Shown one piece after another: positions 49-3,201 of a DNA stretch of 64,000 nt. The position numbers and the translations under genes were made by a program. The stretch is from Pirellulales bacterium (GTDB lineage Bacteria > Planctomycetota > Planctomycetia > Pirellulales > JAEUIK01). The DNA is taken from assembly GCA_019745975.1 (NCBI GenBank), contig JAIESQ010000094.1:1-64000 (forward strand). The letters run 5' to 3'. Each line of letters starts with the position of its first letter. Position 1 is the stretch's first letter. The notes beneath the pieces were generated by a model, which saw nothing but the letters and a program-made list of their open reading frames with translations, ran no database searches and was not told where the DNA came from.

Positions 49-1449
49 TTACCGACGATTTCTCAGAAAGTGCAGCCAGAAGACAAACGCGGCGAAAAAC
101 GTCTGTACCCGTGACGTAGCGAGCATCGAATGTACAAGTTCCGCGGCTTCCTGAGACGGACAAGCTAGGAAGTTGGTGGTATCGTCGAAGACGACCGGCT
201 TCTGGTGGCGTGGCCCCACTTTGCCGAAGCGCAGGGATTTGTACATTCCCGCGATAGCAACTTTCCATGGAGCAAAGCTGTACTCACCCACTCCGAACAC
301 GGAGAACTCGGGCTTATCGGTATAGATTGAACTGGCGCGGTTGCTCAGCAAGTCTCGGTGATGCTGTAAGTAGTTCCACGTTTGGGGTGCATGGTGAACG
401 ATTTCGGCGGTACTCTGGCCAATCCGTTGCTGCGGGACAATCATCCAACGTGTCGACGTCCGGTCGGCAACTTTGGAGACCTCCGAGCTCTTGAGCATGG
501 GGAACAAGTAGTCTGGCTCAAGATCGACAAGATCGCCGAGGCCATTCCGAAACTGATTTCCCTCTTGCCGCAATTCCATCACTCGAGAGCAGTCGTGCTT
601 GATGCCGGAGCGCCACTTGATTGCTGAGCCGCCGTCGAGTTGCTTAGTCTGTCGATATGCCTGTAGATCGGCAACCATTGACTTGGCCATCACGCCAATT
701 GTCCTACACGGTTGCCTGGACTCGGAAAGCTGATCGTAGCAGTGCGCGACACGCGGACCGATTACCGGCCCAAAATTCATGACGACAAGCGATGCATCCA
801 CGGCAACGTCGAAATGGGCAGCCGCATCGATGCCAAACAGATTAGCCCTTGTCAGCGAGTAATCACGCTTCCAGCAATAATGCAGCAACTTGCGGGCAAC
901 GACGTTCTTCACCAGCATTGCCAACATCGCGTCGCGACCATTCAGGGCATCGGCGAGTTTCGATAGCATCCATTCGGAGATATCGAAGTTGGACTTGCCG
1001 GTAAGCGCATCCAGTCCTTTGTGACGTTGGAAATTCGTTTTCGTCGGCAAGTTCGATCCGCCCAGCGCACTGACATGCGCGTTGGTCACCCAGGGTGGGT
1101 TGCCAACGACCAGAATCGGCTCAGCAAGGTCGGAAAGTACCGCCGACAAATCCAGTTCAAAGAAGTCGGCGCAGTCGAGAGAGAATCTCGCGTTGTCAGA
1201 GCGCGAGCGCACGGTATCCGCGGCCTTGGCGACGTGAGCCGGATTGATGTCAATTCCTTTCACGACTGCCGCTGTCGGCCACTGGTCTGCAGCGGCCAAG
1301 AGAAATCCGCCGCGGCCACAGGTTGGCTCGAGAATTGTAGCCGCGTCGACTCCCATTTCCTTGAGCAGCGCGCAACAGCGCGTCGCGAGCAGAGGCGGCG
1401 TCTGGAAGTCTCCGAACTCGGCGATTGCCTGGGACTTTGTACGAGGCAT
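49..1449 (-). CDS. N6-adenine DNA methyltransferase, Eco57I-like, possibly truncated at the C-terminus
   Basis: The 466-residue protein has the two motifs of an N6-adenine methylase: a SAM-binding motif I (EPTCGRGGFLLAA, about residues 41-53) and the catalytic NPPW motif IV (about residues 117-120). Such enzymes methylate adenine in a restriction-modification system or act alone. It lies 13 bases downstream of a broken gene on the same strand (1463-2283), which would be the natural place for its endonuclease. The C-terminus ends abruptly after FAAFVFW. Relatives as I recall them continue with a D-x-KRP-x-T segment, and another frame just past this point reads EKSSVTG, so a frameshift near position 70 is possible. 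The region is visibly lower in GC than the neighbouring genes. Methylase assignment is firm; target sequence and activity are unknown. Confidence 0.85.
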   Translation of the reverse strand: MPRTKSQAIAEFGDFQTPPLLATRCCALLKEMGVDAATILEPTCGRGGFLLAAADQWPTAAVVKGIDINPAHVAKAADTVRSRSDNARFSLDCADFFELDLSAVLSDLAEPILVVGNPPWVTNAHVSALGGSNLPTKTNFQRHKGLDALTGKSNFDISEWMLSKLADALNGRDAMLAMLVKNVVARKLLHYCWKRDYSLTRANLFGIDAAAHFDVAVDASLVVMNFGPVIGPRVAHCYDQLSESRQPCRTIGVMAKSMVADLQAYRQTKQLDGGSAIKWRSGIKHDCSRVMELRQEGNQFRNGLGDLVDLEPDYLFPMLKSSEVSKVADRTSTRWMIVPQQRIGQSTAEIVHHAPQTWNYLQHHRDLLSNRASSIYTDKPEFSVFGVGEYSFAPWKVAIAGMYKSLRFGKVGPRHQKPVVFDDTTNFLACPSQEAAELVHSMLATSRVQTFFAAFVFWLHFLRNRR

Positions 1450-1462
1450 AACAATCGGTTCA

Positions 1463-2283
1463 CTAGAAGTACCGAACGCCTTCGGCGGCAGGGTTGTACT
1501 GATATCGCCACTGCAATGCGAACGAGATGGAGATTTTTCCGTTCAGCGGCGAGGTCTTGAACGCGGCCCATTCCACGTCTTTCGGCAATTCGATCTTGCC
1601 CTTGGCGGCCATTACTTCCTCGTATGCTTCAACCGTGGCGCGGATGACCGCGATCTCATCGCGCTGAAGTCCCTTATGCAACGCCTTGTATCCAGCCGAT
1701 GTTTTTCGGGCAAAGACGATCGCGCGCAGCGCGCGCTTCGCCATCTCTTCATCCACGGCGTTGCTGTTGAGACGCTCCCGCAATAGTCGCGCGCTCGCGC
1801 AGAGCTGCTGATCAGCGACTTCTGTTCGCGCGTAGTACATGGCGGCCGTGATCTGTAGCGGTGTGCTCCGCTGCGATTTCAGGAAGTCCGTGCCGTTGTC
1901 CGTTGTAAATGCAAGCCAGAATATCGTATTTGGCGCCTAGCACTCGCTCGTACGGGGAGTCGAATGGCTCGCTAGATTGCGGTTGTTTATCGGATGTCGC
2001 CTTTGTGTTTAGAGACAATTCTGGAATGTCCACGCCTGACGCGGCGCTGCCCGTAAGCGTGATACCGAGCTTTCGGGAGATTTCTGCTTTCAAGAGTTTT
2101 TCGATATAAGTACCTAGCTAGCGACTTGCCGTCCGTTCTTGGCGGTATTCCATGTTGCTTCAGGTGAGCGAGCCACTCGTCGCCGGCGATGCTGGAGCCT
2201 TTGAGCAGTTGATGCTGATCGCCCCGCAGGTAATGGTTGACTTGCTTAACAATGTCGGGAATTTGCGTCGCGTTGAGCCGCAT
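1463..2283 (-). pseudogene. Frameshifted gene upstream of the methylase, possible restriction endonuclease remnant
   Basis: Three overlapping frames on this strand each read like protein in turn. The first starts at 2283 (MRLNATQIPDIVKQ) and runs to about 2110. A second frame continues (YIEKLLKAEISRKLG) to about 1940. The third reads APNTIFWLAFTTDNG and onward to the stop at 1463. The third frame has an in-frame TAG at about 1941, so it cannot be read from upstream without a shift. Joined together the product would be about 270 residues with no motif that I recognise. Position just upstream of the methylase suggests a cognate endonuclease, but that is inference only. Two independent shifts argue for a decayed gene rather than one sequencing error. 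Confidence 0.6.
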
Positions 2284-2546
2284 GGTTCCCAATTCTAGCC
2301 GCGGTGCGCAGCGTCGAAAATGGCTGGCTGTCCGTGGCCCGCTCGAGTCATCGCTTCGGGTGTGCGCCAAGTCAGGCGGACAACCTCAGCACGCGAAATA
2401 GGTTCTAAAGTCGGCCAGCAGGCGTTGGCGTAACGTGGATGTCCACCGCGCGCTGTCGCGCGGAAAAGCTTCACAACGAAGCGGCGATGGAACCGCTACG
2501 GACCTGCCTCGCGTGGCGCGCGCTCGGCACGGCCATTCGCATCAAC

Positions 2547-2583
2547 AAAAAAAGCCGGCCGCCATCGTCAGACAGCGGCCGGC
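2547..2583 (-). terminator. Rho-independent terminator of the candidate RNA
   Basis: On the minus strand the stem GCCGGCCGC/GCGGCCGGC (9 bp, 12-base loop; plus coordinates 2554-2562 and 2575-2583) is followed directly by seven T residues. This is a textbook intrinsic terminator and no annotated gene ends next to it on this strand, which is why a short upstream transcript is inferred. Confidence 0.8.
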
Positions 2584-2719
2584 CGGCCGATATGGCTTGG
2601 TTTGCCACAAGGGCTATGAGAAAGATTGGCTGCCTAGCCAAGGTCGTGACCGCTTGAATCGGACTCCACGAGGGAGACCCCTCAAGCAAGGCCCAGACAA
2701 GCAGCCCGTCGGCTGCTCG

Positions 2720-2752
2720 CTAGGCGAGCCACCTCTGGTTACCACTACACAT
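2720..2752 (-). CDS. 10-residue peptide ORF with near-perfect Shine-Dalgarno
   Basis: The ORF encodes MCSGNQRWLA and stops with TAG inside the loop of a GCTCG/CGAGC hairpin. Eight bases before the ATG is GAAAGGAGGTGGTCC (2755-2769 on the plus strand as its complement). This matches the exact complement of the 16S rRNA 3' end at 14 of 15 positions, and the fifteenth can still form a G-U pair. Such an extended site is far beyond what translation normally needs. The peptide may be a regulatory leader, or the site may titrate or sense ribosomes. Function is not known to me. Confidence 0.4.
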   Translation of the reverse strand: MCSGNQRWLA

Positions 2753-2790
2753 GCGGACCACCTCCTTTCGACCGGGATCACCCCGCCCCG

Positions 2791-3201
2791 GCGCCAGTCC
2801 AGCCTGACAGAGGGCGGGCTTTCGGTCCGGCCGGGGCCACGTTAGCCCCCGGCACTCGCTACGAGCGAATCGTAGGAATCCGGCGCCGATTAGGCAAGAA
2901 AATTCAGCGGGTTGCCGCAGGGGCAAAGTACGCGAAATCTGCCGGATTGGCAGGCACGTACCGCTAAATCCCCAGGTTCTGGCGGCATCCTGCAATGCAA
3001 AGGTGCTCTTCCGCCTGCGATCGACTCCAACTATAAGGGCAGTCAGATAAGGAACTTGCGACGGCAGCGGTCCTGCTGGCGCCGGGCCCGTTCGATTGGT
3101 ATCGGAGTTGCTACCACAAAGCTGTTGCCGATTCGAAGAGCCGTTCGAAACCTCGATTTCAACCGTCGCAATTCGGTAGCCTTCGCGTCGAGGGCATAGG
3201 C
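2791..3201. other. Intergenic stretch without a recognised gene
   Basis: About 410 bases between the candidate RNA and the receiver-domain gene. The ORFs present on both strands have no recognisable protein character. It must hold the promoter of the minus-strand RNA and of the plus-strand receiver gene, but I could not place either with confidence. Confidence 0.4.

What the first reader, a model, noticed from the sequence alone, without database searches (positions are those of the whole stretch)
2547..2790. Structured RNA with a 10-codon ORF behind a near-perfect Shine-Dalgarno and an intrinsic terminator
A GAAAGGAGGTGGTCC site pairs with the whole 16S 3' end (14/15 Watson-Crick, one G-U). 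It precedes MCSGNQRWLA, whose TAG lies in a hairpin loop, followed by three more perfect stems and a 9-bp GC stem with T7. No gene follows. This looks like a ribosome-sensing or titrating RNA, or a short-peptide small mRNA, and I cannot match it to a family.
Basis: partly seen in the sequence, partly recalled or inferred. Interest (0 to 1): 0.6.

Follow-up and report, generated by a model that had tools for sequence, protein, structure and literature searches.

The report
Planctomycete RNA with ribosome-binding mini-gene
The spot is one copy of an apparently undescribed small RNA gene, single-copy in planctomycete bacteria wherever we found it, that carries an unusually perfect ribosome docking site in front of a tiny 8-18 codon gene; the tiny gene is always kept although its peptide keeps changing, so being read by the ribosome may itself be the RNA's job.

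Summary
On the minus strand (about 2862-2547, promoter at 2897-2869) lies a free-standing RNA gene of about 315 nt. Homologues occur as exactly one copy per genome in 119 of 297 Planctomycetota genomes at a strict cut-off; at least 6 of 20 re-checked "negatives" also have one. There were none in 115 and 60 genomes of two other phyla and no Rfam match. In 136 homologues: a purine tract pairs at least 13 contiguous nt with the 16S 3' tail in 128; a start codon follows 5-11 nt after GGAGG; an 8-18 codon ORF ends with any of the three stops. In 125 of 130 the stop lies within 12 nt of a conserved CGACGGG-type hairpin (6 expected after shuffling). The last codons and the stop form one strand of a covarying long-range helix (P1). 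Neighbour genes are not conserved, so it is not a leader. The peptide diverges (118 distinct), and one RNA motif is read in different frames in different clades. Best reading: a ribosome-engaging, translated regulatory RNA, whose P1 domain is opened by translation. Existence, structure and ORF conservation are shown; transcription, ribosome binding and output are inferred.

The parts
2869..2897 (-). sigma70-like promoter, -35 TTGCCT (2897-2892) and -10 TACGAT (2874-2869)
   Evidence: aligned with CTTGAC-N17-TANNAT in other members of the order
2830..2853 (-). 5' hairpin with loop CUAACGUGG; the loop carries the RACG motif also seen in P2
   Evidence: (covarying stem)
2770..2828 (-). 5' branched domain; closing helix GACCG/CGGUC abuts the Shine-Dalgarno directly
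   Evidence: closing helix varies by eye (ACUGAAG/CUUUAGU, CUAGAG/CUCUAG, ACCAA/UUGGU); covariation of the closing helix not scored by a tool
2755..2769 (-). extended Shine-Dalgarno GAAAGGAGGTGGTCC, complement of the whole 16S 3' tail
2720..2752 (-). mini-ORF ATG..TAG, peptide MCSGNQRWLA
2719..2735 (-). P1, 5' strand: end of the ORF including the stop
   Evidence: covariation in a related clade
2702..2717 (-). P2 hairpin GCAGCC-GACG-GGCUGC (CGACGGG motif)
2640..2699 (-). P3, variable hairpin between P2 and the P1 3' strand
   Evidence: variable in length
2627..2639 (-). P1, 3' strand GGCUAGGCAGCCA
2547..2588 (-). intrinsic terminator, GC-rich stem and T7
   Evidence: found in 111 of 136 homologues

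Best explanation
This is a free-standing, single-copy RNA gene of Planctomycetota whose product is meant to engage the ribosome. A structured 5' domain and a structured 3' domain flank a site that is complementary to the entire 3' tail of 16S rRNA, followed by a start codon and an 8-18 codon ORF. SHOWN by comparison: the 16S complementarity, start, frame, stop, helices P1 and P2, terminator, and absence of a partner gene. INFERRED: the RNA is transcribed; 30S subunits with an exposed anti-Shine-Dalgarno tail dock on it; the mini-ORF is translated; and the ribosome reading its last codons and stop opens P1, so that the 3' domain switches between a closed untranslated and an open translated state. 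The act of translation, rather than the peptide, would then be the signal, making the RNA a sensor or modulator of ribosome state. Its downstream target is unknown.
For: 119 of 297 planctomycete genomes, one hit each; earlier model 47 of 392, one each; 0 of 115 and 0 of 60 in two other phyla. Contiguous 16S pairing of at least 13 nt in 128 of 136, with the position after GGAGGTG split 63:63 between A and G, both able to pair with the 16S U. In 20 relatives the site with a start codon occurs only in this RNA; other hits are the 16S antisense strand or sites without a start. All 136 analysed have the ORF, with mixed starts and stops; start and stop placed relative to the motif in 125 of 130 versus 6 expected. 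P1/P2 covariation 0.290 versus 0.231 shuffled, 0 of 500; slid controls at most 0.139. Own P1 partners rank better than swapped ones (median rank 0.14; 0.51 for a control segment). No conserved neighbour. The GAGGTGGC motif is read as AGG-TGG-C in one clade and GA-GGT-GGC in another. Planctomycetes use few Shine-Dalgarno genes (PMC5397173), and an extended Shine-Dalgarno is used in Flavobacterium to respond to ribosomes with a freed tail (PMC9976891).
Against: No transcript, ribosome-binding or translation data. The full 15-nt pairing runs almost to the start codon, so it may compete with start-codon placement rather than help initiation. Predicted folds do not leave the Shine-Dalgarno clearly more open than elsewhere (mean unpaired 0.41). 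No target or output was found. A conserved Arg/Lys near the C-terminus (118 of 136) leaves room for a peptide function. Whether planctomycete ribosomes occlude their 16S tail was not examined.
Confidence: 0.45

Rival explanations
1. Small mRNA: the 8-18 residue, Cys- and Arg-containing peptide is the product, and the RNA structure only controls its synthesis.
For: ORF in all 136; Arg kept with CGA 33, AGA 13, CGG 2, AGG 2 codons in the RGG clade; R/K at -6 to -4 in 118 of 136; Asp/Glu in the last six residues in only 12.
Against: 118 distinct peptides of 136, length 8-18, no residue kept throughout; the same RNA motif is read in different frames between clades; the 3' end of the ORF is constrained as an RNA helix.
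Confidence: 0.2
2. Untranslated antisense to the 16S 3' tail: the RNA titrates, protects or matures 30S subunits, and the ORF is incidental.
For: Complementarity runs past a normal Shine-Dalgarno into GAUCC, the 3' flank that pairs with 16S GGAUC, in most sequences; single-copy, free-standing gene.
Against: Start codon, frame and stop position are conserved in 125 of 130 versus 6 expected, with start spacing peaking at 7 nt as for real initiation.
Confidence: 0.15
3. Cis-acting attenuator or leader of a downstream gene.
For: Promoter, short ORF, alternative helices and terminator resemble attenuators; in one clade a downstream strand can also pair with the Shine-Dalgarno (mean z -1.5 versus -0.4 elsewhere).
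Against: No neighbour family is shared across the phylum; the largest cluster is 13 of 60 loci at scattered positions and strands.
Confidence: 0.05
4. Chance: an rRNA fragment, or the 16S antisense strand misread as a Shine-Dalgarno.
For: The tract equals the antisense of the 16S 3' end, and weak model hits in non-matching genomes are exactly that.
Against: No rRNA, tRNA or tmRNA at the locus; the element is separate from the 16S genes and carries its own ORF, helices and terminator.
Confidence: 0.01

Closest known systems
Extended Shine-Dalgarno of rpsU in Bacteroidota (Flavobacterium johnsoniae; PMC9976891)
   Same: An exceptionally long 16S-tail complement found at essentially one locus, in a phylum with little Shine-Dalgarno use
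   Different: There it lies in the leader of the bS21 gene and autoregulates it; here no protein gene follows and the ORF has 8-18 codons
Dual-function small RNAs (SgrS/SgrT, RNAIII/hld, Spot 42/SpfP; general knowledge)
   Same: Free-standing, terminated, structured RNA with a translated short ORF
   Different: Those conserve the peptide or a target-pairing seed; here the ORF architecture and 16S complement are conserved and the peptide is not; spread is phylum-wide
Leader-peptide and uORF motifs (odc1, uORFC-8-2, uORFC-6-1; PMC8632094)
   Same: About 10-codon ORF built into a structured RNA
   Different: Those sit upstream of a defined gene; this one has no conserved downstream gene
yfr6 / Downstream-peptide RNA (PMC2864571)
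   Same: RNA of about 250 nt with a short ORF
   Different: Reported as a conserved 5' UTR of a short ORF in another lineage; Rfam 15, searched whole, gave no match here
prfB programmed frameshift site (general knowledge)
   Same: An SD-like purine tract (GAGGUGG) lies a few nt before the P-site codon at the stop
   Different: No slippery codon, all three stops used, no long second frame kept

Membership tests
Any Rfam 15 family | covariance-model score above the gathering threshold | tested here: not met
   (20 homologous loci; only one unrelated tRNA); best sub-threshold hit Hrs13, 18.9 versus 52 bits
tmRNA / tRNA | ARAGORN tRNA or tmRNA call | tested here: not met
Dual-function sRNA | free-standing terminated RNA with a short ORF | tested here: met
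   (sequence level only)
Dual-function sRNA | separate base-pairing or regulatory activity on targets | not testable with these tools
   needs experiments
Dual-function sRNA | functional, conserved peptide | tested here: inconclusive
   118 distinct peptides, yet R/K kept at -6 to -4
Attenuator leader peptide | conserved regulated gene downstream | tested here: not met
rpsU-type extended-SD regulation | extended 16S complement unique in the genome | tested here: met
   (exact pattern only, 20 relatives)
rpsU-type extended-SD regulation | controls the gene for bS21 | tested here: not met
   no conserved downstream gene
rpsU-type extended-SD regulation | 16S tail normally occluded on the ribosome | not tested
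   would need planctomycete ribosome structures

The most novel reading that the evidence does not exclude
A new class of housekeeping RNA, specific to Planctomycetota, in which translation of a minimal ORF with a dispensable peptide is the signal: the RNA docks on 30S subunits through a complement of the whole 16S tail and reports or controls ribosome state through a helix that only a translating ribosome opens.
Probability: 0.3. Interest if true: 0.9.

Novelty: new variant of a known kind. Interest (0 to 1): 0.75.

Why it matters
Single-copy RNA genes conserved across much of a phylum are rare, and this one appears to be undescribed. It sits where RNA meets the ribosome: the site mirrors the entire 16S tail, in bacteria reported to use few Shine-Dalgarno sequences. 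If the act of translation rather than the peptide is selected, it would be a clean case of an ORF kept as a ribosome-driven switch, testable with start- and stop-codon mutants in a culturable planctomycete.

Tried and rejected
Known RNAs: rRNA, tRNA, tmRNA and all Rfam families searched, none fit. Guanidine-I riboswitch (E 1.2) and Hrs13 (E 0.04) were below threshold and rejected. The exact pattern AAAGGAGGTGGTCCNNATG in genome contigs mostly returned unrelated Shine-Dalgarno sites in many phyla; only the planctomycete locus L035 showed the element when searched for its motifs. A downstream mimic of the 16S tail (GGATCACC) looked universal at first but is confined to some clades (20 of 136 versus 2.5 expected); likewise pairing of the Shine-Dalgarno with downstream sequence. 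RNAalifold on 13 sequences recovered two 5' hairpins but not the closing helix. In the P1 swap test only 25 of 136 own pairings rank in the best 5%, so that test is supportive in the median rather than sequence by sequence. Papers on planctomycete small RNAs were searched without a matching report; subscription journals and preprints are not in that library.

Full report
What is there. On the minus strand of the window, 2769-2755 reads GAAAGGAGGTGGTCC, followed by ATG at 2752 and a ten-codon ORF, MCSGNQRWLA, ending in TAG at 2720. Downstream come a hairpin GCAGCC-GACG-GGCUGC (P2), a variable hairpin (P3), a strand GGCUAGGCAGCCA that pairs back to the end of the ORF (P1), and a terminator at 2588-2547. 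The predicted fold has z -4.3 over 246 nt and z -4.1 over 316 nt. No rRNA, tRNA, tmRNA or Rfam family is found.

It is conserved. Searching 57 relatives with the DNA gave matches in 15 genomes counting its own, covering the Shine-Dalgarno, the ORF and P2. One relative's contig (G003:C408, 12,910 bases) corresponds to the named record JAGQPT010000002.1, "Planctomycetales bacterium isolate HKST-UBA47", which sets the phylum. Aligning these loci showed a longer unit: a promoter (CTTGAC-N17-TANNAT type), a 5' hairpin with loop CUAACGUGG, and a branched domain ending directly at the Shine-Dalgarno. In the window the promoter is TTGCCT/TACGAT at 2897-2869, which puts the RNA at about 2862-2547.

Spread and copy number. 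A model of the core (R1) found 47 of 392 Planctomycetota genomes, one hit each. A broader model (R2) found 119 of 297, again exactly one hit each. It found none in 115 genomes of the phylum of a Lentisphaerae record and none in 60 of the phylum of a Nitrospira record; these empty answers used Infernal's stricter filters. Twenty planctomycete "negatives" were searched again with laxer filters: at least six hold a clear homologue just below the cut-off (L233, L234, L235, L239, L240, L244), while the other recurrent weak hit is the antisense strand of the 16S 3' end. Prevalence in the phylum is therefore underestimated, and real absence in some families is not excluded. Two further homologues turned up by chance in G001 and G010. 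The genome set is unnamed, so I do not assign genera.

Free-standing. All-against-all comparison of ORFs within 7.5 kb of 60 loci found no neighbour family shared across the phylum; the largest cluster covers 13 loci at scattered distances and strands. A terminator-like hairpin with a T-run was found in 111 of 136 homologues, at a median of 164 nt after GGAGG.

The 16S complement. Relatives' 16S genes end in GGCTGGATCACCTCCTTTCTAAGG. Across 136 homologues the tract pairs contiguously with this tail over at least 13 nt in 128. The base after GGAGGTG is A in 63 and G in 63, both able to pair with the 16S U, and the following T and C pair in over 90%. In 20 relatives an exact search for AAAGGAGGTGRTC found, besides this RNA, only 16S antisense sites and sites with no start codon behind them.

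The ORF. All 136 analysed homologues have a start codon 5-11 nt after GGAGG (mode 7; GTG 85, ATG 35, TTG 16) and an ORF of 8-18 codons with TAG 48, TAA 46, TGA 42. A start in that place and a stop within 12 nt of the CGACGGG-type motif occur in 125 of 130, against 6 expected when the bases between are shuffled. These sequences are related and were found with models that contain the region, so the counts are not independent trials; the models do not enforce a frame. The peptide is loose: 118 distinct sequences of 136. Its steadiest feature is an Arg or Lys 4-6 residues before the stop (118 of 136), with Arg encoded by four different codons in one clade. The nucleotide motif GAGGTGGC lies in different frames in different clades: CAG AGG TGG CTC here, CAG CGA GGT GGC in a genome of the same family. 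This points to selection on the RNA and on the existence of the ORF more than on the peptide.

Structure. On 33 sequences of a related clade, P1 and P2 score 0.290 for covariation against 0.231 in shuffles (0 of 500 as high) and at most 0.139 when partners are slid; 87% of cells pair. The shuffle control does not remove relatedness; the slid control does. Over all 136, the ORF end pairs better with its own downstream strand than with others' (median rank 0.14, against 0.51 for the first half of the ORF). In 13 close relatives, 10 of 13 predicted pairs of two 5' hairpins show compensatory changes. The closing helix next to the Shine-Dalgarno varies in step by eye and appears in the window's fold, but was not scored by a tool.

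How it may work. The Shine-Dalgarno and start lie between two folded domains, and the last codons and stop are one strand of P1. A ribosome that docks through its 16S tail, starts and reaches the stop must open P1. The step from there to an output is unknown. The nearest precedent is the extended Shine-Dalgarno of Flavobacterium rpsU, read by ribosomes with a freed 16S tail (PMC9976891). Planctomycetes are named among phyla with few Shine-Dalgarno genes (PMC5397173). In some clades downstream sequence can also pair with the Shine-Dalgarno, or mimics the 16S tail; this is not general and is not part of the main claim.

Verdict. That this is a real, conserved RNA family with a conserved mini-ORF I hold at about 0.97. 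The ribosome-engaging mechanism I hold at 0.45. It is a new family, not in Rfam 15 and not found in the open literature searched. I file it as a new variant of the short-ORF or dual-function RNA kind, not as a member of any tested family.

Noticed in passing
L016 (G000:C160:41197-41284), next to a 6-phosphofructokinase-like ORF: A second, decayed-looking copy in the same genome: 5' hairpin and ORF-like stretch recognisable (75% identity), but the Shine-Dalgarno and P2 are lost.
   Followed up: partly
homologues, mainly family f21 (for example L139, L152, L210): A GGATCACC stretch about 45 nt after the mini-ORF stop copies the 16S 3' tail and could pair with the RNA's own extended Shine-Dalgarno; 20 of 136 versus 2.5 expected.
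   Followed up: partly
5' hairpin (window 2830-2853) and P2 (2702-2717): Both hairpins carry a similar RACG loop; in some clades both are CGACGG, as if one factor bound twice.
   Followed up: no
window 49-2370, minus strand: A methyltransferase-like ORF (49-1449, weak Pfam match below cut-off) followed by overlapping ORFs without Pfam match; possibly a broken gene downstream of the RNA.
   Followed up: no
mini-ORFs of the homologues: Cys is encoded by TGT in 124 of 147 cases and a TGTA stretch recurs near the ORF start, which hints at nucleotide-level constraint.
   Followed up: no
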